64,000 nucleotides of DNA from Diphasiastrum complanatum (Eukaryota; Streptophyta; Lycopodiopsida; Lycopodiales; Lycopodiaceae): the NCBI GenBank assembly GCA_029204225.1, contig CM055093.1, forward strand, positions 1,038,117 to 1,102,116, written 5' to 3'. Below the pieces are notes generated by a model that did no database searches, was not told the origin of the DNA, and saw nothing but the letters and a program-made list of their open reading frames with translations. The position numbers and the translations under genes are program-made. Numbering within the stretch: the stretch's first letter is position 1; every line of letters starts with the position of its first letter. Positions 16,847 through 63,282 of this stretch are shown piece after piece.

Positions 16847-17026
<180 letters not shown>

Positions 17027-17032
17027 AAAAAA

Positions 17033-17851
17033 TGTGAGAAATTGGCAAAAATCTAGCGTGGTATTTTTATGATAGAAGTTTGTAAGTAAATCTCACATGT
17101 GTGGAGGATGTTCCCACGTGTGGAGAATTGTAAAGTAAATCAAAATGTTTGATAAAGGGGTCTCATAGAATTTCATAGTCAATCATTTAGGTGTAGGATG
17201 TTGATAGGGTCAAATTTGGCATAGATGGCAAATTATCCATTTCCACTTGTAATGCCAATATTGAGCCAAAATAGACCCAAACTTGTGCCAATTAGAGTGT
17301 AGACAAGTGTCATGCTTTTGTTTGATGAAGCTTAAGAGGTCCAATAGGATTTAGAGGTGGAACCTTGTGAGGTCCAATAGAAAATTGAGGTGTGCTTGAA
17401 TATAGTCCAATAGAATTTAGAGGTGCATGGATCAATGGTCCAATAGGATTAAGACGTGGCAAAGTGTGATCCAATCATAGTTAAGCATAGTGGTAGCTCA
17501 TGAATCTATTAGTATCATTGTACTCCTCCTTTTGGATCTAATTGATTTTGAGATTGAGTGGATTTTGAGAGTCATTGAATTTCTAGCTTTCTCTCTCTAC
17601 CCGAGAGCTCATGATGGTTTTTCTCTCTCTACCCGAGGAGAGCAGCTTGTTTTTACTTAGAATACTTTTGGAACACTTCCCACACGTGTGAGTGAGAGTT
17701 GGAAGTGATTGAATGCATGTAGTAGTGTGTTTTTGCCATAGAATCAAAGATAGATCTTGAATCTCAATCTAGTCTTGATCTTGGTGCATCTACACACCTT
17801 AGGAGATCACAAGTACATGTAGTGGACAATCCACACGTGTGAAATTCAACA
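17033..17851 (+). repeat. 5' LTR of element A
   Basis: This 819-bp LTR starts 'tgtgagaaattggcaaaa' and ends 'gtgtgaaattcaaca'. It contains a 33-bp-period CCAAT array (17339-17475) and three CACGTG cores at 17115-17120, 17681-17690 and 17832-17841; the last two are perfect CACACGTGTG palindromes. I see no canonical TATA box. Confidence 0.95.
17339..17480 (+). promoter_or_regulatory. CCAAT-box array with 33-bp period in the LTR
   Basis: The motif gtccaatag occurs at 17339, 17372, 17405 and 17438, exactly 33 bp apart each time, and a fifth CCAAT lies at 17471. Units share 'gtccaatagratttagaggtg' loosely. CCAAT is the binding core of NF-Y factors in plants. The same array is present in the 3' LTR from 21617. 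The position upstream of the presumed transcription start suggests an enhancer. Confidence 0.8.
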
Positions 17852-17864
17852 TGGTATCAGAGCC
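17852..17864 (+). other. Primer-binding site of element A
   Basis: The sequence tggtatcagagcc begins at the base after the LTR. It is the standard plant copia site complementary to initiator Met-tRNA. Confidence 0.93.
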
Positions 17865-18608
17865 TACCTAAGGTTACCATGCATTTTGATCCATTTGAGT
17901 GAAAACTATTCATCAATCTTGAGCTAGAAATTGTCAAGGCCCATTTTCCTAGCTATCTTGTCCAATTTTGGATCAAAAGAGATCAAAAGGACATTGATTA
18001 GGTCTGACCTGGTACTGTACGGAATCAGGTGCTCAGACACGTGTGAGTAACATCCAATTTCAGTTTGGGAGTTCTCTTTCATGTTTGATCCAAAAATCTT
18101 GCTAGATAGCTTGTTTTGAAGCTATTTATGTCTAGTTTCTGATGCAATCAGTTTCATTCCATTTGGTTGAGCCAATCAAAAGTTATAAGCTTTTGAAGAA
18201 GGTTAGGTAGGGCACCTAGACCTGGGTGGACACATTTGGTTTGGTCAAAAGATTGCTTGTTTGATCCAAAATTACAGTTGAATGCTTACCAATCTCATCT
18301 ATATGTGATCTAGGCACTGTTTTGAGATCTTAGCCATTTTGTTTCATGCAATATCATTGTATTTGAGTCAAATTTGGTTTCTTAGTGTATTTCACACGTG
18401 CTAAGAGTGTTTTATCCTAACTTTGCCCATACTCCATCATTTGATGTGAAGTAGATCTAGTTTTGGAGAGATTGAGATAGCTAGTGAGAATCATCTCACA
18501 GTTTGTTGCAAGATCTTGCATAGGAGATGGTAGCACACCATTATTGGATCCTATAGTGAGAGAGAAGCAACATTTTTTGTTCATAACTTTTATTTATCTC
18601 CACTTTAC

Positions 18609-21182
18609 ATGACTTCAATGAGTTCATACTTGTTGCAACCAAGTGAGAGATTGTCTACTTCCAATTATTCAATATGGAAGTTGAGGATGGAGTCCATCTT
18701 GATACTCCAAGATGTGATGGACATTGTACTTGGGATTGAGGAGGAGCCTCAAGTCCTTCAAGAAGTACAAAAATACAAGAAGAGAGCTAGGATGGCTCTC
18801 CACTACATTAAGATGAATGTCTCTAATGAGATATTGAGGGAGATTGGTGATTGTTCTACATCCAAGGAAGCTTGGGATTGTCTCAAGTCCATCTATGAGG
18901 CTAAGAACACCTCTAGGCTCCTCACTCTTAGAAATCAAATATTCCAAAGTAGTCAAAAGAGTGATGAGAGTGCATCTAATTATGTTTTGAGAGTCAAGGA
19001 TATTCATAGGGAGCTTGCATGTATTGGTGACTCAATCAATCAAAGTGAGCTAGTCCAAGTCATTCTCAATGGCTTGAGAGATGAATATGACAACCTTGTC
19101 CAATCCTATGCTATTAAGGAGGAGCTACCAAGTTTGGAGGCCCTTCAAAGTGTGCTTATTTCTGAAGAATCAAGACAAGAGTACAAACTCTTGAGGATGG
19201 ACAAGCTATCACTCAATCATGATGATGGCAAAGTTCTATTTGCCAAGCACAAAGAGAGGAGTAAGAAGCAACACCATCACTTCTCTAATGACAAAGCTAA
19301 AGACCAAGATGGAGAGGAGGAGGATACCTCTCATGCTTCTACTTCAAATCTCAAGAAGAAGAAGATCAAGTGCTTTTATTGTGGCAAGAAAGGCCATTAT
19401 GCCACCAATTGCTTCAAGAAGAAGAATCAACTCAATCAAGCCAACATCACCAATGAGAAAGAAGACTATATTGCAAGTGATGGAGAAGGCTCTCTTGTGG
19501 CATCAAGCTTCTCCTCTTCCACCTTCAACAAGGATGACTCATGGTATATTGATAGTGGAGCATCTTCACATATGTGTGGCTCCAAGAACTTTATTTCATC
19601 TATTATGCCTTATGATGGAGTCAAGAAGACTATATACTTTGCAAGTAAGCATGAGTGCAATATTGAAGGAGTAGGGATTATTACCTTGAAGCTTGCATCT
19701 TCTAAAGATCTCTTTCTCAACAATGTTCTTTTTGTCCCAAAGCTTACAAAGAACATCTTAAGTGTTGGCCAACTTCTTGGTAGTGGCTTTGATGTCAATT
19801 TCAATATTGACAATTGTGTGATCAAGAAGGATGGTGAGATCCTTGCATATGGATCAAGATTTGAAGGCATCTACAAATTGGATCCAAGTGAGAGTGCAAA
19901 CTCTCTTGATGTTTCTTATATGTCCAATATTTCAAAGGAGGATGATCACACAAGATGCACATATCTTCTCTCTTCAAGTATTATGGTGTATGATTATTCC
20001 TTATTACTCAAAGCATATGTTGAGAAGAAATTCTCATTGAAGATCAAAGCCTTGAGGAGTATTGGAGCTCTTGAAGGAATAGCACCATATGAAGTTTTAT
20101 TCAAGATGAAGCCTAAGGTTGATCACCTTAGTGAACTTGGTAGTGCTTGCTTTGCACATATTCCCTTGGAAACAAGAAGGAAGGATGATCCAAGCTCATG
20201 GATCATGATTGGATACTCATCCATCAAGGAGGCCTTTAGTGTCTTTACACTCTCTATTTCAAATGTGATGGTGAATAGAGATGTCATATTGCATGAAGAT
20301 TCAATCTTGGAAGTGGCCGAGATCAAGGCTTCTCAAGAAGCTTCACAAGTTATCCTTTTTGAAGGTATTCAAGTTATGATGGGGCCAATGTGTGAGGAGG
20401 AGTTTCTTCTTCATATGATTTCAAGAAGATCTTCAAGATGCATGGCCGAGTCTTTATGGCTCACCTTACATGGCAAAGAGGGGCATCTTTCATGTTGTAT
20501 CTACTACAACACATTCATATATGCTTCTCTTCCTTTGCTTGAAATGCTATCTTGCTTCATTGAATTTTTTGGATCTCAAAGTTCAAGAAAAGCTATACTA
20601 GTTTTGTATGATGCTTATGGTATGGACATGTTTCTTGTCATTATTGACTTAGATGTGTTTCCAATACTTTTTGAAAGCAAGATATTGTTTTGTCAAAAGT
20701 ATGCTCTTGGTTCTAGTAAGAACAAGATTGAGCTTGGTACTCACTTTTTTGAAAATCATGTTTTCACATGTTTTGAGGCAAATTGTAAACTCCTCTTGAG
20801 ATTAAGTGAAGCATCCAAAGTGGACACTTACATCCTTGAGAGAGTAACTAGCCTAAAAAAGATCAAGATAGTCTTTGATATCAAGATTAGATCCATCATG
20901 GATATAGTTCATTGTATGTGGACTAGTCAAGCTAGAAAGCATAATCTTGATAATCATCATTGTTTCACATCTTATGATCTTGATCTCCATGATCCTTATG
21001 AGGCTTGGAAGACTCAGATTTCTCTATTTATGGTGCATCCATCATGCAAGTGGAACTTTCAAGGCAAAGATCATCATCAAGCATGGAGGAAGCCCATGAT
21101 AATAGTGGCATATTGGTGGAGCACTCTTCAAAGGCATTGGCAAGAGATCTCTACCAAAGAAATCTTATCATGGATATGGTGA
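18609..21182 (+). CDS. Element A polyprotein: gag, protease, deleted integrase and a novel C-terminal domain
   Basis: One 857-codon open frame. Residues 1-210 are a DUF4219/UBN2 copia gag ('STSNYSIWKLRMESIL', 'IKMNVSNEILREIGDCSTSK'). A CX2CX4HX4C zinc knuckle has C255, C258, H263 and C268. Protease follows with the catalytic Asp 315 in 'WYIDSGASSHM'. The integrase catalytic core is deleted: 'KIKALRS' near residue 480 jumps to 'ALEGIAPYEVLFKMKPKV', so the catalytic acidic residues are gone. 'RRSSR' at about 606 marks where copia proteins normally lead into reverse transcriptase. Instead about 250 residues follow with no known domain, including a block at about 650-806 ('FEANCKLLLRLSEASKVDTY', 'MWTSQARKHNLDNHHCF', 'DPYEAWKTQIS') shared with elements B and C. 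The protein ends 'TKEILSWIW'. The long intact frame suggests recent selection in the source copy. Confidence 0.85.
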   Translation: MTSMSSYLLQPSERLSTSNYSIWKLRMESILILQDVMDIVLGIEEEPQVLQEVQKYKKRARMALHYIKMNVSNEILREIGDCSTSKEAWDCLKSIYEAKNTSRLLTLRNQIFQSSQKSDESASNYVLRVKDIHRELACIGDSINQSELVQVILNGLRDEYDNLVQSYAIKEELPSLEALQSVLISEESRQEYKLLRMDKLSLNHDDGKVLFAKHKERSKKQHHHFSNDKAKDQDGEEEDTSHASTSNLKKKKIKCFYCGKKGHYATNCFKKKNQLNQANITNEKEDYIASDGEGSLVASSFSSSTFNKDDSWYIDSGASSHMCGSKNFISSIMPYDGVKKTIYFASKHECNIEGVGIITLKLASSKDLFLNNVLFVPKLTKNILSVGQLLGSGFDVNFNIDNCVIKKDGEILAYGSRFEGIYKLDPSESANSLDVSYMSNISKEDDHTRCTYLLSSSIMVYDYSLLLKAYVEKKFSLKIKALRSIGALEGIAPYEVLFKMKPKVDHLSELGSACFAHIPLETRRKDDPSSWIMIGYSSIKEAFSVFTLSISNVMVNRDVILHEDSILEVAEIKASQEASQVILFEGIQVMMGPMCEEEFLLHMISRRSSRCMAESLWLTLHGKEGHLSCCIYYNTFIYASLPLLEMLSCFIEFFGSQSSRKAILVLYDAYGMDMFLVIIDLDVFPILFESKILFCQKYALGSSKNKIELGTHFFENHVFTCFEANCKLLLRLSEASKVDTYILERVTSLKKIKIVFDIKIRSIMDIVHCMWTSQARKHNLDNHHCFTSYDLDLHDPYEAWKTQISLFMVHPSCKWNFQGKDHHQAWRKPMIIVAYWWSTLQRHWQEISTKEILSWIW

Positions 21183-21300
21183 GGGTGCTGCTATGATGGA
21201 TCCCTTGGCTGATCTTCACTTCTTATGCATACCAAAGGATCCACTCAAAAAGATTTACAAACTTCTCAAGTGATCTAGTACCTTTCCAAGCTACTTTTTT

Positions 21301-21309
21301 GAGGAGGAG
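21301..21309 (+). other. Polypurine tract of element A
   Basis: gaggaggag directly precedes the 3' LTR, as expected for the plus-strand primer. Element B has a related tract at the same position. Confidence 0.85.
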
Positions 21310-22123
21310 TGTGAGAAATTGGCAAAAATCTAGCATGGTATTTTTTATGATAGAAGTTTGTAAGTAAATCTCACATGTGTGGATGATGTTCCCACGTGTG
21401 GAGGATTGTAAAGTAAATCAAAATGTTTGATAAAGGGGTCTCATAGAATTTCATAGTCAAGCATTTAGGTGTAGGATGTTGATAGGGTCAAATTTGGCAT
21501 AGATGGCAAATTATCCATTTCCACTTGTAATGCCAATATTGAGCCAAAATAGACCCAAACTTGTGCCAATTAGAGTGTAGACAAGTGTCATGCTTTTGTT
21601 TGATGAAGCTTAAGAGGTCCAATAGGATTTAGAGGTGGAACCTTGTGAGGTCCAATAGAAAATTGAGGTGTGCTTGAATATAGTCCAATAGAATTTAGAG
21701 GTGCATGGATCAATGGTCCAATAGGATTAAGAGGTGGCAAAGTGTGATCCAATCATAGTTAAGCATAGTGGTAGCTCATGAATCTATTAGTATCATTTTA
21801 CTCCTCCTTTTGGATCTAATTGATTTTGAGATTGAGTGGATTTTGAGAGTCATTGAATTTCTAGCTTTCTCTCTCTACCCGAGAGCTCATGATGGTTTTT
21901 CTCTCTCTACCCGAGGAGAGCAGCTTGTTTTAACTTAGAATACTTTTGGAACACTTCCCACACGTGTGAGTGAGAGTTGGAAGTGATTGAATGCATGTAG
22001 TAATGTGTTTTTGCCATAGAATCAAAGATAGATCTTGAATCTCAATCTAGTCTTGATCTTGGTGCATCTACACACCTTAGGAGATCACAAGTAGTGGACA
22101 ATCCACACGTGTGAAATTCAACA
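21310..22123 (+). repeat. 3' LTR of element A
   Basis: This 814-bp LTR matches the 5' LTR except for about eight substitutions, one inserted T and a 6-base deletion (acatgt) near the end. It is followed by aaaaa, the target duplication. Confidence 0.95.
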
Positions 22124-22649
22124 AAAAAATAGAGTATTATGAAACGGATATCAAGACTTTTGGGATGACGAGAACGTCGAAATTGAGAAGAATGATTTAT
22201 GATTACCAATAATTGTATTCACATGGATTCATTTTTTACTTTTACATTCATTGCAATACTTTTATACATATCAACTCATAGCTACAACGTCAATACCAAT
22301 ACATATTTTGTCCATTCATGACCATTTCAATTTCAAACAACAATAGGGTTTGCAAGTTCCATAAAATTGTGGAAAAAAGATGTCAAAACTATGAGGGAAA
22401 AATGAAGGGAGCATTAATTAATGGTTGGAATATTAAAGATGATCCAAATTAAACCCCATTGAAGATTACACCTCAAAAGAGGCTCATTGGCTCTACAAGT
22501 GACTTGTATGTAATGAGGGGGTGTCTCATCTATGATGACACCGAAGAACACCATGGTTTGTAAGCACTTGGCAGTCCTTGAGTCTTACGGTTTGTAGCAT
22601 CGAAGAGAGAAAATGATGCTACTACTTTGAACTCAATATCTCAAAGTGG
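22124..22649. other. No supported gene
   Basis: Sequence on the far side of the element A insertion. It should be the continuation of the DNA left of 17033. I see no transposase motif and no long frame in it. Confidence 0.4.
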
Positions 22650-23015
22650 TTACATGTAGTTCTTAAGAAGATTTGTCATAGGAACTGCTATCTGAGCATA
22701 TTCCTTGACAAATCGTCTGTAATATCCCGTCAAACCAAGAAAGATCTGAAGCTCCAAAATATTCTGAGGTCTTAGCCAATTGAGTATGGCTTTAACCTTA
22801 TTCGGGTCCATCTTAATCCCATCTGACAAGATAATGTGACCCAAATATGCTACTTCTTCAACGAAGAATTCACACTTGGATTGTTTAGCATAAAGCTTAT
22901 GCTTTCTGAGAGGTCGAAACACCTTTCTGGGGTCTTTTAGATGCTCCTACCTCGTTTTGCTGTAGACGAGGATGTCATCTAATACAACTACAAACTTTCC
23001 CAAGTATGGTCTGAG
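22650..23015 (-). pseudogene. Ty3/gypsy reverse transcriptase fragment
   Basis: The minus strand reads 'VLRPYLGKFVVVLDDILVYS', with the catalytic F/Y-x-DD-type motif (here VLDDI), then 'LYAKQSKCEFFVEEVAYLGH' and 'LQIFLGLTGYYRRFVKEYAQ'. These are the last fingers/palm and thumb motifs of gypsy reverse transcriptase. One stop (TAG at about 22948) divides it. At its upstream end it is fused to copia sequence at about 23018. Confidence 0.88.
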
Positions 23016-23483
<468 letters not shown>

Positions 23484-23601
23484 TTCATTTCTACACAAGG
23501 AATAGGCCTTTGAATAAAAAACGATCTTGCACTTGATTCATAACATTGTTATGATCATTGTCTCTCATTTGATTGGTTTTGCTTTAGACCAAATAGTGTA
23601 A

Positions 23602-23708
<107 letters not shown>

Positions 23709-23875
23709 TTGACACTACTTGTTCATAGTAATTTAATTCAAAGAAAAACCACTAACTATATATTTCCGACAATATGATCTAATGAAAGAATATTTGTTCA
23801 ATCACACTTGAGGATTTTGATCAAACTCTAATTGGCCATTATGTAAATCAAACTCTATTAGTCTAAAAAATAATT

Positions 23876-23878
<3 letters not shown>

Positions 23879-23970
<92 letters not shown>
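23879..23970. repeat. CT microsatellite
   Basis: An uninterrupted CT run of about 46 units, 60 bases before the 3' end of the Ptta/En/Spm remnant. Confidence 0.96.
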
Positions 23971-23972
<2 letters not shown>

Positions 23973-24029
23973 GACAATCATTTAACATAATGAATATCAT
24001 AAATAACCAAATTAAGTTAGTTGTACATT

Positions 24030-24960
24030 TCAAACAAGTTGAATTAACAAAATTTTGGGTATGCATGCATACATGATGCACTGGAGGCGGTGGTGTGTTT
24101 TTGTCATGCAAAGAATCTTGGCTTGCATTCGTATCAAACTATCATGCAATTCTTTGATCCTTGACTCCACCTTTGCCTCCACTTTTGCCTCCACTTGTGA
24201 ATCCAACCTTGCATCAACAAGTCTATCTACCTCTTCCAAGCTGACATAATTAGATCTATGCCTACGATCAGGTAGCGCTGCACCAAGACCACATCCTGGA
24301 GCACGTCCTCGATTTACTTTGCCAAAATAAGCATCTAGAGGAACGCTAGCCTCAACCCTGACGGTTTTATCCAAACACTAGCAATTGGAAGAACAAATGA
24401 AATGTTAGTTGAAAATTAGAAATTGTTACATTGACCATATAGATAATTTTCTTTCAACAAACTTACATACCTGTAGTTTTTTCTTTGCAAATTCATTAAG
24501 CTCTCCATGATTTTTACTTCGTTTGAAAGTATGTGCACAAATGAAAAGCTCTCTTGCTGTTGGTTCTCGTCCTAACCCTTTTTTCCTATGACAAAATTGA
24601 AGAAGAAGTCACATACTTATAATATTACAAAAAAATTGACATAACAATTAGAGATTTAAAAAGCATACCATATCATCCTTCAACCCCACATAGCCAGCAT
24701 GACCCCCATGCAAACTTCTCATGAATTTTTCACGATTTCTTTCTCTCATCTTCTGTTGAAAGCCAAATATACCAATAATAAAGTTAAATTGTACAAAACA
24801 CTTTTTTTATACATAAGTGAAATACACTATTGTTTTATCTTGGATACCTGGTGTTCTGGAGAATCGTAAACTGTTGAAATTGGAGCCACTCTTCTTGATC
24901 TTGCAACTAGCGAGGCTTACTTGGCTCTTCTCGGCTATAGTTTTAAAGACCTATAAATTC
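24030..24960 (-). pseudogene. Ptta/En/Spm (Transposase_24) gene remnant, several exons
   Basis: This is the accessory (TNPA-like) protein type of plant CACTA transposons. On the minus strand, exon-like pieces read 'QDQEEWLQFQQF' (near 24890), 'KMRERNREKFMRSLHGGHAG' (24660-24755, acceptor TTTCAACAG, donor ATG|GTATGC), 'GLGREPTARELFICAHTFKR' with 'SKNHGELNEFAKKKLQ' (24475-24590, donor CAG|GTATGT), and 'VNRGRAPGCGLGAALPDRRH' plus a coiled-coil-like VDARLDSQVEAKVEAKVES (24030-24374). These match the order of the Ptta family: NR-K, GREPT...LF..TH, GLG, C-terminal coiled coil. Two joins appear to need one-base shifts, so it is probably inactive. Confidence 0.7.
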
Positions 24961-25212
24961 ACATCTTTGATACAAATTAGTTGATATGAACTATAGGTAC
25001 AAATATGACTTCATAATTTAGATGAAAATTTAATTATTGTTCATTGCTATATTAAAAATACTATATAACTATACTTATTTCTATAAGAAAGTACCTCATG
25101 CCGTAAATTACAAAAGATATGTGAAAATTTGTCTTTGAAATACTTGTCCACATATTTACAGTTGTATGAAGCCTAACACATGACAATACAAAAACATAAA
25201 AAATGACAATGG

Positions 25213-26040
25213 GAACCTATGGGAAGTGACAGGATAGAGAACGGGCATACTGGTAGCCTGAGACCTCCGTTCTAGCATACCGGGGGTGGCCCTAGGTTCG
25301 TGAATCCGATATGGACCTGCTAGATCCATTCATGTCCAATTTTGACATCGTTTGGTCAATATGACCTTTCGTCCCGGGGAGAACGCTTTTAGGCAATGGA
25401 AATGACCTAGTTTGGCAATTTTCCATCAAAGGGTCCATTTTTCCGAACAGCGTCGGTTTCTCATATTGTCTATTCCGACCAGTGGGCGACGTCGAGGGGA
25501 ACCTATCGGAATAGACAGGATGTTGAATGGGCCTACAGGTAGCCCGAAATCTCCGTTTGAAATTTGACTCAGAGAAGGGCTTCGGGGACAATTGGTGTTT
25601 GGTCCCAGAATTGGCTGAAATCACCTAGATTTCTAGACGGGGGGTGGTCCAAGGTTTCTGAATCCGATACAGACCCGATGGATCCATTCATGCCCAACTC
25701 CAACATCGTTTGGTCAGTATGACCATTTGTCCCGGGGAGAACGCTTTCGGGCAATGGGAATGACCTAGTTTGGCAATTTTTCGTTCAATGGTCCATTTCT
25801 CCAGATGGTGTCAGTTTCTTGTGCTGTCTATTCCAGCTAGTGCAGCGACATCGAGTGGAACCTGTGGGAAGTGACAAGACATCAAACGGGCATACTGGTT
25901 GTCTGAAACCTCCGTTCGAAGTTCAGCCCAGAAACGGGCTTCGGGGACAATTGGACAATCAGGGGTGGCCCTAGGCACGTGGACCCGATACAGACTTGAT
26001 GGATCCATTCATGCCCAATTCCAACATCGTTATGACCTTT
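25213..26040. repeat. Three tandem copies of a GC-rich repeat of about 290-360 bp
   Basis: Units begin near 25213, 25499 and 25859 at 'aacctatgggaagtgacagg' or a variant. They share 'gatggatccattcatgccca', 'gtcccggggagaacgctt' and 'cctagtttggcaattttt'. Base composition is clearly richer in G and C than the flanks. Small minus-strand frames across the units are not convincing genes. Its place between a Ptta gene and the AT-rich 26045-26570 repeat suggests a subterminal region of a CACTA element. Confidence 0.8.
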
Positions 26041-26044
26041 TTCT

Positions 26045-26570
26045 AGACTAAAATCATCATCTCATGCAAGAAACTGGCATAAGTGACAACCCAAAATATA
26101 GTCTTTTATTTTGGTTTATATGACAACATTTCAAAAGCCGTCATTTATGCCAAAGATGATAATTTTTTTGGTTTTATGGCTAAATGTCTAAATAAGTGGC
26201 CAAATAAAAGGAGTTAGATGAATATGATATCATAACGCCCTTAAGTTGATATAAGTGTGTCATATATTTTGTAATACACGTTGATGATATGTATTTCAGT
26301 GTATTAGTATCCAATGGTATTTAACACATTGATAGGTATAATATCCGATGTATAAATTTACACATATAAGATGAATATGATAGATATATGTGATATCTAG
26401 ACTTAAGTCATCATTTCATGCAAAAAAATTGGCATAAAGGATGGCCTAGAAAACTCTCGTTTATTCTGTCTATATGATAGCTTTTCAAAAGGCATCATTT
26501 ATGGCAAAAATGACATTTTTCTAGTTTTGAATGGCTTATATGTATAGATGAGGAGGTGAAAAAAAGTAGT
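26045..26570 (-). repeat. Two units of the palindrome-bearing AT-rich repeat, inverted
   Basis: These are reverse-orientation relatives of the units at 42100-44100. They share 'catcatctcatgcaa', 'aagccgtcatttatgcc', 'ttgatataagtgtgtcatat' and 'ataggtataatatccgatgt'. The second unit is incomplete. Confidence 0.75.
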
Positions 26571-27797
26571 TACATTGAGATAACAATATAAGAGTCTTGT
26601 TAAGAATTAGGATTTGAGGACCATGCAAAGTTCTACAATGACCTCCATGCATGTGAGATTGTACAAGATCTATGATAGATCAACTCAGATTTTCAAGATC
26701 TATCAAATGCACTTTAAATCAAGGCAAGAGCTCATCTACATCAAAAGTTAAGATCATCCAAAGACAAGCTAGTTTTTCACATCCACATGAAAAAACTAAG
26801 TGCAATTCACTATGAGACACAAAACCAAGCCCCTTGCTCTCATGTAGAGAGATAAAGGCCACTCTCTCAAGTAGAGAGAGAATTTGCTACAAAGAAACAA
26901 GTCCAAAATTGCATTAACTCTCAAAAATATTGTATGTACAAAAATAGCACACTTCCAAATAGTAATGAATATTTGTCACAACATAAGAAATATAGACATC
27001 AAAGAACATTATAAGTACCTGTAAAATGTTGAAGATGTGGTATGATGGAAAAATGCCTTAATACTTTTTGTGGCACTTTGGATTGTGGTTTTTTCCAGTG
27101 ACTTTCTTTGCAAATGGGACAACTATTCAGACTTTCATATTTTCCACAGTATAATTCACACATGCATGGATAGTGTGGTAACCTAGACCAATGTCCTTGA
27201 TCACCTTCTTTGCCTCATAGGTGGAACATGGAAGTCATTAGAGGAGTTTTGAGCTCCAAAAAAACCCTTTAAGAATTCATGCAAGATGTAGTTTATATTA
27301 TTAAAATATTATAACACTAATACTTTTGACTTGCCATAACTTTTTAATCGTAGCTCAAAAGTATGTCATCTAACATATCATTGAAAGCCCTTGTTGAGCG
27401 CTTTTCAATGCTCCAAACTCTGCTAAATTTGGACTTACTACTAAAAAGTTATGCCATTTTTAGTGTGGAATCAAAATGTGGACTCAAAAAGATACGTTAC
27501 ATAGATTTCAAATTTGAGTGTTTTGATTGGTCCATGTGTAAGAAAAAATTGAGAAAAAATATAAAAAGAATCTTTACAAAGGGAATAGATGTTCATGAAG
27601 CAAGGTCAATAGCTTATCAAAACTTGTTTGCAACCATCCATGGACCACCTTTAGATTATATAGACACAATATAGAAAATAATTTGCTTCTTTTGCATCCT
27701 TCAAACAATGGCTTCTTTGCATCTTCCATTAGAGAAGAAATTTTTTTGGCATCAACATCTTCATTTCCTTTTACCTTACTGATTGTAGCTTGATTCC
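26571..27797. other. Probable retroelement-derived sequence without a supported gene
   Basis: 26740-26900 resembles the LTR at 53860-53960: both contain a tgtagagagata-type stretch and repeated 'gtagagagag'. A 103-codon plus frame (27363-27674) has no recognisable motif. I cannot define the ends of an element. Confidence 0.35.
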
Positions 27798-28629
27798 TGT
27801 GCAAAAAGTACAAAAAGGACCAAGAGTGGATCCTAATCTGATCCTCAAGAGGGATTGGTTGTCGGATTACTTGACCTATCAATCTACTTCAGATTAAGAT
27901 CAATCTAGATCAATTCTAGACACAAAATCCTAACAAGAACAATCATTAATTGAAGGTAAGTGTACTTTATGGTTTCACATGTGTGAAACATTGTCTGAGT
28001 ACAGACTCCAACCTGAAAATAAAGTACACATTGATAGAACCTCAAAACAATCAAAACAAATGTAGACAAATGGAGAGAATCACTCAAAATTGCTTTCAAA
28101 ACCAAGATTGGTGTCTCACAATGACTATGGCCAAATGTGGCTCTATATATACAATAAGTGGGAGCTCGTGGTAATGATCATCCCTATGATCCCACATGTG
28201 TGAAGGTGCTTTGTCATATGATGATTCATCATGCAAAACTGACACTTGGACAAAACTTTCTATTTTGAGCACTTTTGGTCCATTTTCCCTCTATATGGAG
28301 ATCTACTTGGAAATCTTCTAGAAGTCAAAATTCGCCTACTTCAAATTATTCCACACATGTGAGCTGTCCTCTACACATGGAATATGACACCTAACCAAAG
28401 GATGTGGCTCATGCAATCCATATATTGATGCCATGTGTCATATGTCTAGAAAACTAGTTTTTGGCCTTTTTAGCCACTAGAACTTGAATTAAATCATATG
28501 TACAACCTATATGATTATGGTGCATGACAAGTACACTATTTTAACACGTGGGAACAGACTCCACACATGTGTGTTTATCTATATACAAGATTTTTGGCCT
28601 CTACCAAGCTTATTTTTGCATTTTTCACA
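27798..28629 (-). repeat. 3' LTR of element B
   Basis: An 832-bp LTR that on the minus strand begins TGTGAAAAATGC and ends TTGCACA. A TATA-like tattgtatatatagagcc (minus strand) lies near 28140-28155. Several CACATGTG palindromes are present. Confidence 0.93.
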
Positions 28630-28769
28630 CTCCTCCTCAAAAATCTAGCTTGGTAAATCTAGCTTGATGGAAAACATGATGATCTTGAACTTGACTCCAT
28701 GGGCTGAATTGGTCTTTGTTGGTTCAAAAGGTGTGAAGATCAGCCAATGAGCTTGATGTTGATCTGAAA

Positions 28770-30146
28770 TCACCATATCCATGATAGTGCTTCTTTGATG
28801 TTGACATCTTTGATGAGCTTGAGAGCTTTGCACCATCCTAGCACCTCCAAAATTGATTCCTTCCAATTTTCATGTAGATTGTTGACCTTGAGGCTTGCTC
28901 CTTCACATGAGATATGCTCCTCTTTCCCTTGAAATGTGAGCCACATGGGTTCAACCATGTTTCTTGAGTTTCTTTTTGGAATCACAACTTGAGAAGGTCT
29001 CTCCTCCTCAATCCTTGGCACACTTGAACCTTGAGATGACTCCTTAAGATCCTCTTCATGGTGCTCCTTCTTGATGGAAATCCGAGACCTCCATGTCTCA
29101 TAATGATCACAACAAGTATGACCATTCAATATGCACTTCCTATGATTATCAAGATTACTTATGCTAGAAACATAAGTCCAAAAATCACCACAACTTGGCA
29201 TGATTTTTCCAATATTGAAATCAAAAGGTATCTCCATCTCAGTAAGGCTAACTACTTGCTTATGGATATAAGTGTCCACTTTGGATTCACTTATTCTCAT
29301 AAGAAGTTTACAACTTGCCTTTAGGATTGAAAACATACAATTTTCATCTTTATGAATAAACACATCATTCATGATCTTATTGAAACCAAAAGATCCTACA
29401 TTATGAAGATATTTCCATTTCCTTGACTTCATAACTAATGTAAGCTTACAAGGAAAACATATTTTGCTATCTTTTAAGGCATCACACTCAACTAGTATTG
29501 TCTTAATCCACCTTTGAGATACAAAAATCTCTTCAAAGCAAAATGGTTCTTCATAAGTTGACATGAGAGCATTAATGAAACTATTTTCATTTTGTGATTG
29601 CTCCTTATTCTTGATTGATTTCTCTTGGATAATAACAATAAGTTTGAACTTATCTAAAGTTCCAAGCAAAATACTTTCCAAAGACATAAAATAAATCCAA
29701 GTTACTTTCATGAAAGTGACATCTATTTTTGCATCTTGAACCAAACAATGCACTTCCAAATGAAAAATTTCAAAAGATTCAACATGTGTTGTGATGGACT
29801 CTTGAAGACAAATCTTGCAAGTCCTTGTGAGACTCCAAGCCTCATTCACCTTTCCACAAAGGAAAAACTTTTCCTTGGACTTGTCCTTCTTGTATTTGCA
29901 TTTTGAACTTGAAGCTCCATCCTTCACCTCGGCCCCCTTGCTTTGGTTCTCCTTGGATGGATTGGTCTTCTTTTTGAGGCATCTTGAGAAAATATATCCT
30001 CCCTTGCCACAAAGGTTGCACTTAGGATCCTTTCTTTCCTTCAATAGGATGCCAACTATTGATGCCATGTGAATAAAAACCTGTGATATGATTCTACAAA
30101 TGTAATTTGTGACTTTCAAGAGACTAGATTTGAACATCTTCAACAA
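28770..30146 (-). CDS. Element B protein: zinc knuckle plus novel domain
   Basis: A 458-codon open frame. A knuckle-like CX2CX4YX4C (C43, C46, Y51, C56) has Tyr in place of the usual His, so metal binding is doubtful. Residues about 203-357 match element A's unknown block: 'CFEEIFVSQRWIKTILVECD' against A's 'CFIEFFGSQSSRKAILVLYD', then 'CKLLMRISESKVDTYI', 'SNLDNHRKCI' and 'HYETWRSRIS'. Here 'KRNSRNMVEPMWLTFQGKEE' follows the block at residues 391-410, whereas in A the equivalent precedes it, so the modules were reordered. The frame ends 'IKEALSWIW', as in A. No reverse transcriptase, integrase or protease motif is present. The function is unknown. Confidence 0.72.
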   Translation of the reverse strand: MLKMFKSSLLKVTNYICRIISQVFIHMASIVGILLKERKDPKCNLCGKGGYIFSRCLKKKTNPSKENQSKGAEVKDGASSSKCKYKKDKSKEKFFLCGKVNEAWSLTRTCKICLQESITTHVESFEIFHLEVHCLVQDAKIDVTFMKVTWIYFMSLESILLGTLDKFKLIVIIQEKSIKNKEQSQNENSFINALMSTYEEPFCFEEIFVSQRWIKTILVECDALKDSKICFPCKLTLVMKSRKWKYLHNVGSFGFNKIMNDVFIHKDENCMFSILKASCKLLMRISESKVDTYIHKQVVSLTEMEIPFDFNIGKIMPSCGDFWTYVSSISNLDNHRKCILNGHTCCDHYETWRSRISIKKEHHEEDLKESSQGSSVPRIEEERPSQVVIPKRNSRNMVEPMWLTFQGKEEHISCEGASLKVNNLHENWKESILEVLGWCKALKLIKDVNIKEALSWIW

Positions 30147-31727
30147 TCTACAAGGACCTACAAAAGGTCTAGCTCACAAACCTAAGAATCAATCTTCACA
30201 GTAATGACTAGTCACTTGGAAACTTTGCTTTGATCACTAAGACAAAAGCACACAATCTTTGAATCAAATCACTAAAGAAATTAGATCCAATCTCCTATTG
30301 GACTCATCAAATACCAATGACTTTTTCTTTTGAAAGTTGAAATGGATATGAAAAAGATTTGACACCTAGATTTTCCTTTTCACTTGACTAGTTTTCTCAA
30401 CACTTGAGATTCTTGAACAAAAGGTGGGTTTTGTTTCAAATACATGAAAATCAAACTTAATCACTTCTTTTGGACTCAATTCTTGACCCAAATAATCTCC
30501 CACTTGAGATTTAGAATGAATTTGATTTGATTTGACAACAAACCATACCACCAATTTTTCACAAAGCTTAAAAATTAGACAACTAGATATTCACAAAGAT
30601 CTCAACCATGCATGAATACTCAAATATAGACTCCTCATTCTAGACATCCAATGGGATCACAAATTGACCCTCACACTCTCACAAAGAAAGTTGAATAGAA
30701 CTAATTTGAGTTTCATACATACTATGTCAATTTTTTCTCAACAAATTGAATTCAATCACTCCTATTGGATTCCACCAATTACTCTACCTTTTAAGACTTG
30801 GAATGAAATTCAAAATCAAAAGTTGTGATTTTTCTCACTAAGATATTTTGCTTCAAAGGGCTAATGCCACTTAGAAAGATTTAATCACCTAGGAGAAGAC
30901 AAATTCTCCACCAATAACAACGCAAAATGAGCTTCTAGATCTTGCCCTCTACAAAGGAAGGAACTCTTAGAAAATTGGATCTCTCTCTACACATTTGCCA
31001 TAGACACCTTAATGACTCTTTTCAAATCTTACAATCACTCAAACAAATTGAGTAGGGCTGAACAATGTGACTTGGATCTCAATCTCTTTTCTAGAACTCA
31101 ATTTAAGCCAATCTATGTCAAATTCTACAAAAGATTTGCATAGATGCTCTATATGCACTAGAAACTCTCAAAGGTTTCACTTGGAGGACAGATCCAAGGA
31201 TGCTTTCTAGCAAATTGATGCTTCTAAACTTGACCTTATCACTCTTGAACAAATCTAGAGTGATGGTACAATGGATTTCATCCTCTCACCTTGCATATTA
31301 CTCCTTAATCTATGATTTTTAGCAAAATCTCTCTCAACTTCAACATGCACTCAAAAAATCAGAGATAATCGATTAATGCACCTAATTCAAGCTTCAAATT
31401 TAATTTCTTGGCTGATCTAATCCTAGAACTAATCAAGGGATTAGATTCTCTATAGAAAATGCTTGATTTTGCACCAAAAATCTCTCAAATTGGGTGTGTG
31501 AGTCAAATTGTACAAATTTTTGAATTTTCTCAGCCAAAACTGGAGCTGTACGGACTCACACGTGTGAAAAGACTTCCTACATCCCACAACAAGATCTGGA
31601 CCAAAAATTTTGAGGATAGCTATCAAATCCAACTCGCTACACAAAATTTGACTAGTTTCCAAAAAACTGCTAATTTTGGCTTTGATTTGGATTAACCCTA
31701 TCAATTCCAACAAAACCTCTTGTACTT
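30147..31727 (-). other. Long untranslated leader of element B
   Basis: About 1.6 kb between primer site and reading frame with no long frame in the element's sense. Non-autonomous LTR elements often keep a long leader carrying the packaging signal. A degraded gag may be hidden here, but I do not recognise it. Confidence 0.55.
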
Positions 31728-31740
31728 GGCTCTGATACCA
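31728..31740 (-). other. Primer-binding site of element B
   Basis: ggctctgatacca on the plus strand is tggtatcagagcc on the element's strand, directly next to the 5' LTR. Confidence 0.93.
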
Positions 31741-32555
31741 TGTGCAAAACGTACAAAAAGGACCAAGAGTGGATCCTAATTTGATCCTCAAGAGGGATTG
31801 GTTGTCGGATTACTTGATCTATCAATCTACTTTAGATTAAGATCAATCTAGATCAATTCTAGACAAAAAATCCTAACAAGAATAATCATTAATTGAAGGT
31901 AAGTGTACTTTATGGTTTCACATGTGTGAAACACTGTCTGAGTACGGACTCCAACCTGAAAATAAAGTACACATTGATAGAACCTATGTAGACAAATGGA
32001 GAGAATCACTCAAAATTGCTTCCAAAACCAAGATTGGTGTCTCACAATGACTATGGCCAAATGTGGCTCTATATATACAATAAGTGGGAGCTCGTGGTAC
32101 TGATCATCCCTATGATCCCACATGTGTGAAGGTGCTTTGTCATATGATGATTCATCATGCAAAACTGACACTTGGACAAAACCTTCTATTTTGAGCACTT
32201 TTGGTCAATTTTCCTTCTATATGGAGATCTACTTGGAAATCTTCTAGAAGTCAAAATTCGCCTACTTCAGCTTATTCCACACATGTGAGCTATCCTCTAC
32301 ACATGGAATATGACACCTAACCAAAGGATGTGGCTCATGCAATCCATATATTGATGCCATGTGTCATATGTCTAGAAAACTAGTTTTTGGCCTTTTTAGC
32401 CACTAGAACTTGAATTAAATCATATGTACAACCTATATGATTATGGTACATGACAAGTACACTATTTTAACACGTGGGAACAGGCTCCACACATGTGTGT
32501 TTATCTATATACAAGATTTTTGGCCTCTACCAAGCTTATTTTTGCATTTTTCACA
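31741..32555 (-). repeat. 5' LTR of element B
   Basis: An 815-bp partner of the LTR at 27798. It lacks 17 bases (between 'aacct' and 'atgtagac') present in the other copy. A minus-strand TATA-like sequence lies near 32065-32080. Confidence 0.93.
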
Positions 32556-32560
32556 ATTCC

Positions 32561-33285
32561 CATATTCACTGCCCTCATTAATATTGCATGAATCCTCACC
32601 AATACGATTTTCACATTCCAATGAGACCGTTTGGCACAACGAGACTTGCATGGCTATGCAAAGAGCAGTGACAGAGAGCCATAAAAATTTACAGGAGCAG
32701 ATTGGGTGGAAATCTGAGAAAATTGTGCAATTTTCAGATTCTATGAGCTATTGAAGACTTTCTCAGAAAATCTAATCGTTAGCGGACAATTGGACACAAA
32801 TCGAATAGCTTTAAATTTGATCACTGAGCTAGAGGAAGGCCGACCTCAGTCAGATGATGAGCTGCAAGAGAAACCACAAAGAAATTGCAAAAATGTCCAA
32901 AATATTCTTCTCTTCAAAGTTGCTAGGGTTTACAGGAGAAAAACGGTGGATCTTTCTCTGTCAGAAGTGTTTTGATAATCTGTAAATAGGTAAGGATGGG
33001 CGCTTGGATAGGGCAACCCTAACCGCAGCTGGCCGTGGAGTGCCGTGGATCAGCCAGGGAGCTATAGCAGTTTGAATAGGGCGGCATCCATAGCCACAAG
33101 CTTAAAGCTTCAAGCAAAGAGAAATGAAGGAGGAGAGAGATCGAGAGGGCAGTGACGGACAGCTCGTGTGCATCCAATCAGACTGAGAGGGTAGCGGTTG
33201 GAGAGCCTCGGCATATGGAGGAGCACGATTCAGCGCACCCAAATAGTCAACATCGTTGGATTTGGATCCAACGCGATCGATGGTG
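32561..33285. other. Unrecognised sequence between two retroelements
   Basis: Two small frames (within 32437-32754 and 32751-32975, plus) and a richer base composition around 33000-33250 are the only features. I recognise no motif. It may be the original target DNA of element B. Confidence 0.35.
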
Positions 33286-33463
33286 TGAATCTACTCAAAC
33301 TCGCATTCTATCTTTCCCACACTTTCAAAAAGTGTTTATTCAAATGAAATTTAGACTAATGAACTTTGAAAAGTCAACCTCTAAGTCTAAAACAAATTTT
33401 GACCTCACTATGCCAAATATGGAAATATTGCAAAACGTGATGAAACTAGTTGAATCTTTCACA
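33286..33463 (-). repeat. Truncated 3' LTR of the copia element at 33-38 kb
   Basis: 178 bp match the terminal part of the LTR at 37770-38419, from 'tgaatctactcaaactcg' to 'gaatctttcaca'. The rest of this LTR is missing, so target duplications cannot be checked. A purine tract on the minus strand abuts it. Confidence 0.85.
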
Positions 33464-33465
33464 CT

Positions 33466-37169: not shown

Positions 37170-37756
37170 GTAGCAATGACCTGATCTTCTCTTTCAACCT
37201 GCTTCAATGCACAAAGTACTCCTTTGAACAACAACAAATGCGTTCAAAAGAAATCACCAAGATTTGAAACTAGCTCACAAATTCTCTTTTAGCACTTATC
37301 CAAGCAAATCAACACATAGAATCATGGAATCTTGATCAACTTATGATCTATCCTCAATCCAATGACTTTTGCCACTTCCTAATATTGAAACACACTCAAA
37401 TGAAGTCCATCAACCTCACTATCAAGAGAGCCAATCAAAATTAGGGTTTTGACAAAATCACAAAAAATTGACTATTCCAAATCTACAGGCAAATGCTTAA
37501 AATTTGAAATGCAATCTATAAGCCACCACTTAGGCTGAACCAATGATCCAAAAATCGGCCCAATCTAGTATGTGAATTCAAGAATCAGAATTGAACAAGT
37601 ATATTGACCTATTTAGTGTTTTGATCTACAAAAGATCCAATCTACAAAAGCAAAAAATCCGATTTTGGTGTAGAATCCTCTCTAGCATGCTCTAGACTTG
37701 ATATCTTCACCAAATCATTGATAGATCTGATTTCCTCCTTCATAACCTGAAACACA

Positions 37757-37769
37757 AGCTCCGATACCA
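37757..37769 (-). other. Primer-binding site of the 33-38 kb copia element
   Basis: The minus strand reads tggtatcggagc, one base different from the usual tggtatcagagc. It abuts the LTR at 37770. Confidence 0.85.
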
Positions 37770-44678: not shown

Positions 44679-44807
<129 letters not shown>

Positions 44808-50303: not shown

Positions 50304-50515
50304 AGCTCTGATACCATGTGAAAGTTTTCAGATCATTAAAATCCAAAGCACAAACTCGCCTACAAACTTTCCCACACTTTCAAAAAGTGTATTTAAATGA
50401 AATTTAGACTAATGAACTTTGAAAAGTTATTCTCTAAGTCTAAAACAAGTTTTGGCCTCAATATGCCAAATATGGAAATATTGACAAAATGATCAAACTA
50501 GTTGAATCTTTCACA
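50304..50515 (-). repeat. Primer-binding site and internally deleted LTR
   Basis: tggtatcagagct (minus, 50304-50316) abuts an LTR at 50317-50515 that has both ends of the 650-bp LTR at 37770 but lacks its middle, leaving 199 bp. It is the 5' LTR of the copia copy at 47490-49722. Confidence 0.85.
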
Positions 50516-54423: not shown

Positions 54424-55460
54424 TTATTTGGTGTGAGAAGTAGCCAAAGAATATTTGGATGAAGCCAATTCACCATTGCCATGAGAGGATCTCCTTGATG
54501 GAAATCCAATACCACCTTCCTTGATGATCATTCCACCATTCCTTCCATGCTTGAAAAAGGCTTTTGATTTGAAAGCTCCTCCCCTTTGAAAATGGCTGCA
54601 CCATGATGGAAATTCGAGGCCTCCATGCCTCATAATCACCAAGAAGATCAAGGTCACAAGATAGGCAAAATGGCTGATTGCCAAGATTTTGCACTCTAGC
54701 TTGACTAGTCCACATAAAATGAAATTTTTGCATGATAGATCTAATCTTGAAATCAAAAAATATCTTGATCTTATTGAGGCTACATACTTGCTCAAGGATG
54801 TGTCATTTGTGTATGATTCACTTAATCCCAAGAGAAGTTTACAAATTGCCTCAAAATGAAAAAACAAGATTTTTCACACTATGAGAGATTACCTCATACT
54901 TGCTCTTACAAGGTCCAAGAGCATAGATTTGATGACACAACCACTTGCTTTATATATGATTTGGAATCATATCTAAGCCATCAATGACAAGAAATATGTT
55001 CATACAAGAGGCATAATCAAGACTAGCATTGTCTCACTCCAACTTTGAGATGTAGAAATCTCATAAAAGCAAGACGGTACATCAAATATTGGAAAAAAAG
55101 AAAAAGTGAATATGTTGAGGTAGATACCACCTGAAAATTTCCTCTCTTTTCCATGAAATGTGAGCCACAAAGACTCGGCCTTGCCTTTTGAAGATCTCCT
55201 TGGAGCTAGGAGGTGAAAAGACTCCTCCTCAAGTCTTGGCAACTCTCTATTATGCATTTGGATTTTTGGTAGATATGAGTATTCTACCATCATCCTCTTG
55301 ATTGAGATGAGATCCTCCTTATTCCCTACATGCAAAGAAATTTTTACAAAACATATGGATCTAAAGATCCCCAAAGTATCAACTATTGCAATCTTCTTGT
55401 CAAGCACCATTGATAAGAGATACGGCCTCCAATTTAAGTCTTCAATGAAGAAGTCACATA
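54424..55460 (-). pseudogene. Element C: broken copy of the element A/B novel-domain gene
   Basis: Minus strand in the same order as element A: 'PRRSSKGKAESLWLTFHGKE' (A has RRSSRCMAESLWLTLHGKE), 'VPSCFYEISTSQSWSETMLV', then from 54867 'FEAICKLLLGLSES'. After a frameshift near 54740 follow 'FHFMWTSQARVQNLGNQ' and 'DLDLLGDYEAWRPRIS', with the end 'SIKEILSWQW' at 54470. At nucleotide level the core parallels A closely. Frameshifts and stops, and the lack of gag upstream of 55460, make it defective. No reverse transcriptase is present. Confidence 0.8.
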
Positions 55461-61539: not shown

Positions 61540-61710
61540 TGTGAATCATATATGCATGTTACATTGTGCTCTTGCCAAGTTAGATTTGTGAGATAGATCT
61601 TGGATTTCAATCTATGTTTGATCTTTGTGAAATCACCACATCTTAGGAGATCATAATCATACACTTTTGGGGAGTCCAACACGTGTGAAATTTAACATGG
61701 TATCAGAGCC
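61540..61710 (+). repeat. Truncated LTR and primer-binding site of an element A relative
   Basis: 'tagatcttggatttcaatct' through 'acacgtgtgaaatttaaca' (to 61697) matches the end of the element A LTR. tggtatcagagcc follows at 61698-61710. The CCAAT array part of the LTR is missing. Confidence 0.82.
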
Positions 61711-62392
61711 TATCTATGATATCCATGCATACATCAAGAGTGATGAAAAATCTGCCTTGAAATCAAGATCCAGAGAGTGTAGTTGCATCTCTATAGCCAT
61801 CAAGGAGATTTTTGGATCATAGGGGACCAAAAACACATTGATCCATGTTGGGTACTATACATAATGTACTGCTTAGGCACATGTGAGATCGCCAAAATTT
61901 GAATGGTTGGTTTTCTCCAAGTTAGATCCAAATCAAGTGCCTGATAGCTTGTTGGAAAGCTACTAAAGTGTAGTTTCTAGTACAATTGATTTCATGTCAA
62001 TTGAATGTGTATTGATGAAGTTATAAGCTTTCAAAGTGAGGTAGGTAGGGCACCCAACCTGGTTGGACACATCAATTTAGGCTCACATCTACCTTGTTTG
62101 ATCCAAAAACTCAAGAAAAAGCTTGCCAATCTTATCTATTTGAGATCTAGACAAATTTTTGAGGTCATAGCCACATAGTTTCATGCAAATAAATTGTATT
62201 TGAGTCTTTTGTGGATGTTTTGTGTGCTTTTCATGTGCTTGAGTCAAGTTGACCCAAATTTTGTCCTTGCTTCATCTTTGGATGAGAGTTTCATCTAGTT
62301 TGAGAGAGATTGGTAGAGCTAGTGAGATTGATCTCACACCTAGTTGCAAGATCTCAAATTGGAGCTGGCATGATACCATTATTGCATCCTTT

Positions 62393-62575
<183 letters not shown>

Positions 62576-62615
62576 AACACTTTTTGATCCATTGCAAGAC
62601 AATTTCTCAAGAAAA

Positions 62616-63105
62616 GATGGCTTCCATAGGTTCCTTTTTGTTGGAGCATGGTGAGAGATTGAACACCTCCAATTATGCCATTTGGAAGGTGAGGATGGGG
62701 TCCATTTTGGTACTTCAAGATTGAGATTGTGTTAGGACTTGAGGAGGATCCTCAAGTGCTCCAAGAGGTCCAAAAGTACAAGAAGAGGGCAGGATGGACC
62801 TACATATAAGGAAGATGAATGTTTCCAATGAAGTGTTGAGGGAGATTGGCTCATGCACGTCAATCAAGGAGGCTTGGGACACATTGAAATCCATTTATGA
62901 GGCAAGGAACACATCAAGGTTGCTCAGACTAAGGAAGCAAATCTTTCAAAGCTTCCAAAGGAGTGATGAGATTGCCTCAAATTATGTTTTGAGAGTCAAA
63001 AGTCTTCATAGAGAGCTTGCTTGCATAGGAGACCAGCTCAAGTGATCCTAAATGGGCTGAAGGAAAAATTTGACAATCTTGTCCAATCTTATGCAATCAA
63101 GTGTA
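62616..63105 (+). pseudogene. Copia gag of an element A relative, truncated
   Basis: From ATG 62616: 'GERLNTSNYAIWKVRMGSIL', a frame break near 62720, then 'IRKMNVSNEVLREIGSCTSI', 'KEAWDTLKSIYEARNTSRLL' and 'NYVLRVKSLHRELACIG' (open frame 62794-63045). It parallels element A residues 1-170. A small deletion and stop near 63040 and an abrupt end at 63105 ('tatgcaatcaag') finish it. Confidence 0.88.
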
Positions 63106-63282
63106 GGGTGTGTAGAACGAGTGGTGAGCAGCCCTTCGTCTGTCAAGAAGGGTTAGAACACAAGGATAGGCTCCTAGCTATACTTAGTTGCTAGTTTAGA
63201 TGCTTCCTAACTCTACTTTAACACTACCCCAACTTAACTCTACTTTCTCTAACTCTAAGCACAAGCATTCATCATGGTTGTA

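What the first reader, a model, noticed from the sequence alone, without database searches (positions are those of the whole stretch)
17033..32555. Retroelements A and B share an unknown protein domain in place of reverse transcriptase
Elements A (plus) and B (minus) are both complete, with LTRs, primer sites, purine tracts and 5-bp target duplications, yet neither has reverse transcriptase or RNase H. Both carry long open frames (857 and 458 codons) with a shared block of about 155 residues: A 650-806, B 203-357 (CF.E.F.SQ...K.ILV..DA; CKLL.R.SE.SKVDTYI; NLDNH; YE.W...IS) and the same C-terminus (KE.LSWIW). Established: non-autonomous LTR elements such as TR-GAG and LARD exist, but I know of none with such a domain. 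Inference: a protein-coding, reverse-transcriptase-less family mobilised by copia helpers. The domain might be captured host sequence.
Basis: partly seen in the sequence, partly recalled or inferred. Interest (0 to 1): 0.88.

Follow-up and report, generated by a model that had tools for sequence, protein, structure and literature searches.

The report
Retroelements with eroded but open polymerase frame
The supposed new protein domain is, in its first half, a worn-down remnant of an ordinary retrotransposon reverse transcriptase, and what is odd is that these parasitic elements seem to keep the reading frame free of stop codons although its protein sequence no longer seems to matter.

Summary
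Observation: mostly right. A (17033-22123, +) and B (27798-32555, -) are complete LTR elements with PBS, PPT, 5-bp duplications and long open frames whose C-terminal parts are homologous (blastp 3e-21). Interpretation: a new domain is not supported. A profile of the block's first half (A 630-710), built from A/B/C copies only, finds the N-terminal edge of copia reverse transcriptase in four frames outside these elements (E 6e-8 to 1e-4). B's flanks are eroded gag and integrase-RT linker. The second half (A about 709-806) stays unassigned. A also has gag, a protease-region domain and integrase SH3. Between families A, B and C the block shows no third-codon-position excess (A-B 0.38/0.38/0.38, w 0.79), unlike gag and pol controls, yet the frame is open; unselected drift over the A-B distance would leave about 14 stops. 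So openness, not amino-acid sequence, appears conserved; weak constraint (w about 0.7) is not excluded. A related copia family has 53 of 55 scored copies with long frames and shares PBS and an LTR motif, so mobilisation in trans is plausible. Verdict: new variant of a known kind. Why the frame stays open is inferred.

The parts
17033..17851 (+). element A 5' LTR
17852..17864 (+). A primer-binding site TGGTATCAGAGCC
18609..21182 (+). A open frame, 857 codons
18687..19181 (+). A gag (Retrotran_gag_2, codons 27-191)
   Evidence: E 2.9e-28
19365..19415 (+). A zinc knuckle, codons 253-269 (just below Pfam cut-off)
19542..19787 (+). A Pol_BBD domain, codons 312-393 (protease region, recalled)
   Evidence: E 6e-22
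20103..20303 (+). A integrase SH3 domain, codons 499-565
   Evidence: E 5.7e-12
20394..20732 (+). A integrase-RT linker and eroded RT N-terminal edge, codons 596-708
20733..21026 (+). A second half of block, codons 709-806, unassigned
   Evidence: no significant match to RT or RNase H
21286..21309 (+). A polypurine tract region
21310..22123 (+). A 3' LTR
31741..32555 (-). element B 5' LTR
31728..31740 (-). B primer-binding site
30147..31740 (-). B leader, 1,594 nt, 16 ATGs with short frames (at most 21 codons)
28770..30146 (-). B open frame, 458 codons
29586..30146 (-). B codons 1-187: eroded gag zinc-knuckle region, then a weak integrase-core match
   Evidence: z 13.6, 0/300; E 0.009 for B 97-171 (weak)
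29361..29609 (-). B codons 180-262: eroded RT N-terminal edge
   Evidence: z 5.1 for B 188-358, 0/300; E 0.0014, 0/40
29073..29360 (-). B codons 263-358: unassigned second half
28773..29072 (-). B codons 359-458: integrase-RT linker remnant and shared end KEALSWIW
   Evidence: z 11.4, 0/300
27798..28629 (-). B 3' LTR
54470..55310 (-). C, decayed third relative of the block
61552..63176 (+). A-like LTR end, leader and gag of another, decayed element

Best explanation
A and B are members of two large, young, RT-defective families of copia LTR retrotransposons. A is semi-autonomous in layout (gag, protease region, integrase SH3); B has lost recognisable gag too. The shared block is in its first half the residue of the ancestral pol (integrase-RT linker and N-terminal edge of RT), followed by about 100 codons that I cannot assign. 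The elements are copied in trans by proteins of related copia elements, using the same primer site, purine tract and an LTR motif (sharing shown; mobilisation inferred). Since the families split, the block has drifted at the amino-acid level, but stop codons and frameshifts have been removed from the lineages that transpose (inferred from shared against private changes). Most likely reason (inferred, about 0.5): RNAs whose main frame is read through to near the 3' LTR are translated without early termination, so they escape nonsense-mediated decay or otherwise last and get packaged more often; the encoded C-terminal protein itself does nothing specific.
For: RT origin: an HMM of A 630-710 (32 rows, A/B/C copies only) hits RT frames outside those elements: L063 6.2e-8, two in L015 1.2e-5 and 2e-5, window:35229-34720 1.1e-4; three of the four are RVT_2 by Pfam, the fourth was not scanned. 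hhalign A 630-710 E 1.6e-5, 0/40 column shuffles as good; B 180-262 E 0.0014, 0/40. DNA profile hits L063 at 1.2e-7, L015 at 0.004. No clear aa constraint: A-B 0.38/0.38/0.38 by codon position, w 0.79; simulated true w 0.5 reaches that in 5/100, 0.3 in 0/100; fixed differences A-C 0.154/0.210/0.183, C subgroups 0.043/0.068/0.036. Controls: pol L015-L063 0.24/0.20/0.49, A gag-L016 0.30/0.15/0.46. Frame kept: 0 stops against 13.7+-3.4 simulated (min 4 of 300); 12 C copies share no internal stop as a group and indels found in 4 or more of them are -3, +3, -21 or a compensated -7/+7. Stop-free match rows: A 128 of 135, B 48 of 93, both best-score lists. Helper: 53 of 55 scored rows with frames of 1,287+ aa; shared PBS, PPT, LTR motif.
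Against: The second half of the block matched neither RT (5/40 shuffles as good) nor RNase H (94/100 as good for A 709-810). Against the single L015 RT, A's block alone is not significant (z 0.0). Neutral drift with stop rejection gives w as low as 0.79 in only 9% of 300 runs, while w 0.7 reaches or exceeds it in 40 of 100, so weak constraint fits at least as well. Within-family shared variants give w 0.40 for B 1-187 and 0.50 for B 359-458, 0.36 for A 570-634 and 0.60 for the A block, on few changes. One +1 indel is shared by 2 of 12 C copies and four stop positions by 2 of 12 each; the single D copy has indels of 1, 2, 4 and 1 nt and stops in the B frame, private or shared unknown. B's leader has 16 upstream ATGs, so how ribosomes reach the frame is unknown, and a 3' untranslated part running into the LTR is not short, which weakens the decay explanation. 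No expression or mobility data.
Confidence: 0.62

Rival explanations
1. The C-terminal region is a functional but fast-evolving accessory protein (exapted from RT and unassigned sequence), so the frame is open because the protein is used.
For: Frame kept open in A, B and C lineages; alignment A1 has invariant clusters such as SK-VDTYI, NLDNH, KE.LSWIW; weak constraint about 0.7 fits w 0.79; w 0.40 for shared variants in B 1-187.
Against: The conserved clusters are conserved at DNA level with no third-position excess; no Pfam or PDB relative.
Confidence: 0.25
2. The second half of the block is captured host or foreign sequence joined to RT remnants.
For: It has no significant match to RT or RNase H.
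Against: No host homologue was seen, but only this one genome, Pfam and PDB could be searched and genome hits are swamped by A, B and C copies; it lies where the rest of pol would lie.
Confidence: 0.2
3. The block is conserved as RNA or DNA (packaging signal or structure) and openness is a by-product.
For: DNA-level conservation without codon structure; in B against relative D the frame (15% different, gaps counted) is closer than the leader (20-23%).
Against: No convincing consensus RNA structure: -29 kcal/mol over 880 columns, 9 of 77 pairs with a compensatory change; no Rfam hit for 17000-32600; it does not explain multiples-of-three indels and missing stops.
Confidence: 0.12
4. Plain decay: the frames are open only because the families are very young.
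For: LTR identity 98.2% and 95.6%; scored A copies 97-100% identical.
Against: A and B differ at 38% of aligned block sites and drift over that distance should leave about 14 stops.
Confidence: 0.07

Closest known systems
Non-autonomous RLC_Angela of wheat (PMC9744471, passages seen)
   Same: copia by its RLC code (recalled); degenerate coding sequence; co-evolution with autonomous partners; high copy number
   Different: the paper reports numerous frameshifts and in-frame stops there; here the frame stays open
RLG_Sabrina_SA 'semi-autonomous' element of wheat (PMC9744471, passages seen)
   Same: gag plus protease without RT and integrase, like A
   Different: gypsy, not copia; A's frame runs on through eroded pol to near the 3' LTR
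TR-GAG and LARD elements (definitions recalled; search listing only)
   Same: non-autonomous LTR elements, TR-GAG with gag only
   Different: A has more than gag; B is not non-coding like a LARD
Clover yellow mosaic virus defective RNA whose coding capacity determines accumulation (White 1992; only the title in a reference list seen)
   Same: works-like analogue: a helper-dependent RNA that profits from an open frame
   Different: RNA virus, not a retroelement; content recalled

Membership tests
Ty1/copia LTR retrotransposon superfamily | LTRs, PBS, PPT, short target duplication | tested here: met
Ty1/copia LTR retrotransposon superfamily | copia-type gag | tested here: met
   A only: Retrotran_gag_2 2.9e-28; B has only an eroded remnant
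Autonomous copia element | RVT_2 reverse transcriptase and integrase core | tested here: not met
   no RVT_2 or rve hit in A or B
Autonomous copia element | RNase H | tested here: inconclusive
   block second half does not match RNase H, but Pfam also missed a likely copia RNase H piece
New domain family | no homology to known retroelement parts | tested here: not met
   first half is RT N-terminal edge; second half unassigned
New domain family | amino-acid level purifying selection | tested here: not met
   flat codon positions, w 0.79 between A and B; weak constraint not excluded
LARD | non-coding internal region | tested here: not met
   open frames far beyond chance
TR-GAG | gag present, pol absent | tested here: inconclusive
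   A has gag plus Pol_BBD and SH3
Semi-autonomous gag-pro element | gag and protease present, RT and integrase core absent | tested here: met
   A; protease identity of Pol_BBD recalled; activity untested
Helper-mobilised non-autonomous element | cis signals shared with an RT-bearing family | tested here: met
   PBS and a motif upstream of it shared with the L016/L063 family; PPT shared with L015
Helper-mobilised non-autonomous element | mobilisation in trans | not testable with these tools
   needs expression or transposition data

The most novel reading that the evidence does not exclude
Helper-dependent retroelement RNAs are under selection for an uninterrupted reading frame as such, independent of the protein encoded, because translation through the body of the RNA decides its survival or packaging; A, B and C are natural replicates of this rule.
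Probability: 0.35. Interest if true: 0.72.

Novelty: new variant of a known kind. Interest (0 to 1): 0.45.

Why it matters
It removes a supposed new domain and leaves a sharper puzzle: three lineages that appear to keep frames of hundreds of codons open without clearly keeping the protein. If confirmed, it gives a large natural data set for asking whether translation itself, rather than the product, selects retroelement RNAs.

Tried and rejected
By-eye alignments of the second half of the block to RT (KSVDTPM, GSLM, HWK) and to RNase H (STEAEY, ARSKHI) looked good but failed shuffle tests, so I make no claim. A weak hit at L020:8274-8411 (E 0.04-0.07) lies in sequence that does not read as RNase H and was dropped. 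B 97-175 was no better than shuffles against the RT profile (24/40), but that profile lacks the integrase core, so B's integrase-core reading rests on one blast match (E 0.009). A 'captured host gene' could not be tested beyond this genome, Pfam and PDB. RNA structure and Rfam: nothing convincing. Within-family dN/dS was uninformative: A gag to SH3 itself shows w 0.93 for shared variants, the A block 0.60, the B block 1.13; those A and B copies were chosen by protein score, which biases against stops and frameshifts. The C copies were the window copy and 11 of the 40 places listed by a DNA search, picked by me to span 80-88% identity, not at random. Rows dropped: 28 of 30 A copies and 20 of 20 B copies passed the length filter, and copies identical to the window were represented by the window; in profiles, rows over 98% identical, rows under half length and rows beyond a thinning limit were left out, and A/B/C places were kept out of the RT profile (membership of the block profiles checked). 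In one search an older query file was searched by mistake; one search repeats the search with the right one. Literature: no paper on frame retention without protein constraint in LTR elements appeared in the listings; this is a limited open-access library and I saw titles and the start of abstracts only.
Full report
Setting. The window lies in a 1.7447-Gb assembly of 5,176 contigs. Every contig from C1 to C23 for which I saw a length is chromosome-sized, 42 to 102 Mb; a 23-chromosome, 1.7-Gb plant recalls the clubmoss Diphasiastrum complanatum, but this was not tested.

Elements. A runs 17033-22123 on the + strand, B 27798-32555 on the - strand. LTR pairs are 98.2% and 95.6% identical. B is flanked by GGAAT on both sides, A by AAAAA in an A-run. 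Both carry the primer site TGGTATCAGAGCC and the purine tract TTTTTGAGGAGGAG.

Proteins. Pfam finds in A a copia gag (2.9e-28), Pol_BBD (6e-22), the integrase SH3 domain (5.7e-12) and a zinc knuckle just under the cut-off, but no integrase core or RT; it finds nothing in B. Pieces of the block have no believable Pfam or PDB relatives. Pfam's silence on RNase H means little, since it also missed a likely RNase H piece at 33462-34031. A and B align over the C-terminal frame with E 3e-21.

What the block is. An element next to a B copy (L015) carries integrase end, linker, RT (RVT_2 2.3e-73) and, by recalled motifs, RNase H. Against it, B 188-358 scores z 5.1 and B 359-458 z 11.4, each 0 of 300 shuffles as good; B 1-187 scores z 13.6 (0 of 300) against the gag piece of L016. 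Against the single L015 RT, A's block alone is not significant (z 0.0; A 570-857 z 0.8); profiles are needed. hhalign places A 596-708 on linker and RT edge in order (E 9.4e-6). With column shuffles A 630-710 gives E 1.6e-5 (0 of 40 as good) and B 180-262 E 0.0014 (0 of 40), while A 700-810 and B 265-360 fail (5 of 40 each). An HMM of A 630-710, whose 32 rows are all A, B or C copies, was run against every six-frame open stretch of 25 or more residues held; outside A/B/C elements it found the D relative in L064 (3e-8) and then the RT edge in L063 (6.2e-8), two L015 frames (1.2e-5, 2e-5) and window:35229-34720 (1.1e-4), with two more RT-bearing places unsure (E 0.13 and 0.33). A DNA profile agrees (L063 1.2e-7, L015 0.004). 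RVT_2 starts only at residue 92 of the window piece 34720-35187, so Pfam's model begins within this region, which helps explain the missing hit. The second half fails against RNase H too and remains unassigned.

Selection. Between A and B the block differs equally at the three codon positions, 0.38/0.38/0.38, with 211 aligned codons and w 0.79. Fixed differences behave alike: A-C 0.154/0.210/0.183 (w 0.79), two C subgroups 0.043/0.068/0.036 (w 0.66, only 21 changes), B-C 0.354/0.377/0.305 (w 1.60), A-B 0.404/0.427/0.371 (w 1.09); and B against D over the B frame 0.129/0.105/0.117. Controls in the same genome show a strong third-position excess: pol of L015 against L063 0.24/0.20/0.49, A gag against L016 0.30/0.15/0.46, A gag against the element at 62617 0.16/0.11/0.45. 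A 45-nt linker stretch of A against L063 is intermediate, 0.20/0.13/0.27. Simulation with A as stand-in ancestor: neutral drift with stops rejected gives w 1.04+-0.20, 9% of 300 runs at or below 0.79; true w 0.7 gives 0.79 or more in 40 of 100, 0.5 in 5 of 100, 0.3 in 0 of 100. Without stop rejection 13.7+-3.4 stops are expected over both lineages and never fewer than 4 in 300 runs; the window copies of A and B have none.

Frame. In 12 C copies (the window copy and 11 fetched of 40 listed by DNA), indels present in 4 or more copies are -3, +3, -21 or a compensated -7/+7; a +1 is shared by 2, the rest are single; 24 stops are seen, none at a position shared by more than 2 copies; the only group-wide stop is the terminal one. 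In B's alignment to A two group-wide stops appear at A codons 683 and 685, where B is aligned out of A's frame; in their own frame 2 of 3 B copies have no internal stop and one has one. In B, shared frame indels are 3 and 3 nt against 1, 2, 3 and 7 in the leader, but those copies were chosen by protein score. Of scored match rows, 128 of 135 A rows and 48 of 93 B rows have no stop inside; both are best-score lists and so biased. First-look candidates were 12,441 and 26,515, which are not copy counts.

Helper. A copia family represented by L016/L063 has 55 scored rows, all without stops in the matched part, 53 with frames of 1,287 or more residues (a capped best-score list). Its primer site at L016:7255 is the same, and the stretch upstream of it, presumably its LTR, shares a motif with the LTRs of A (87.9% over 33 nt) and B (84% over 50 nt); A and B share that motif at 92.9% over 28 nt; the PPT with its upstream CCAAGCTA is shared with L015. 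That such elements serve A and B is inferred.

Mechanism. Shown: RT-derived first half, absent or weak amino-acid constraint between families, missing stops and frame-preserving shared indels, shared cis signals. Inferred: trans-mobilisation; openness acting through RNA survival or packaging. Difficulties: upstream ATGs (9 in A's leader, 16 in B's), a terminal stop still followed by about 130 nt and the LTR, and a leader more diverged than the frame in B-D (20-23% against 15%, gaps counted), which I cannot explain.

Known context. In wheat, passages of PMC9744471 describe non-autonomous RLC_Angela with numerous frameshifts and stops, and gag-protease RLG_Sabrina_SA as semi-autonomous. A resembles the latter in content, B the former in lost content but not in its open frame. 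A defective plant-virus RNA whose coding capacity determines accumulation is the closest working analogue; I saw only its title.

Noticed in passing
window 33286-38419 (-): RT-bearing copia element with short LTRs (178 bp aligned, 96%), its coding sequence split over several frames; a related partial copy at 47472-50522
   Followed up: partly
window 16850-17022, 23604-23705, 23879-23970, 44682-44802, 62396-62574, 63286-63367: Six perfect TC/CT/GA arrays of 41-90 copies; one ends about 10 bp before A's 5' LTR, one lies between leader and gag of the A-like element
   Followed up: no
window 44-556 (-): DUF7869 fragment (2.7e-12)
   Followed up: no
L064 (G000 C23:18629000-18632000): D, a B-like family: frame 15% different from B, leader 20-23% (gaps counted); why the frame is closer than the leader is unexplained
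   Followed up: partly
A LTR 62-89, B LTR 59-86, L016 about 6470-6522: Motif shared by the LTRs of A and B and by sequence upstream of the primer site of the long-framed copia family, although little else there is alike
   Followed up: partly
L020:8274-8411: Short stretch resembling the SEASKVDT motif inside a rearranged copia element, E 0.04-0.07
   Followed up: partly
window 42304-43756: Tandem array with 378-bp period, about 4 copies
   Followed up: no
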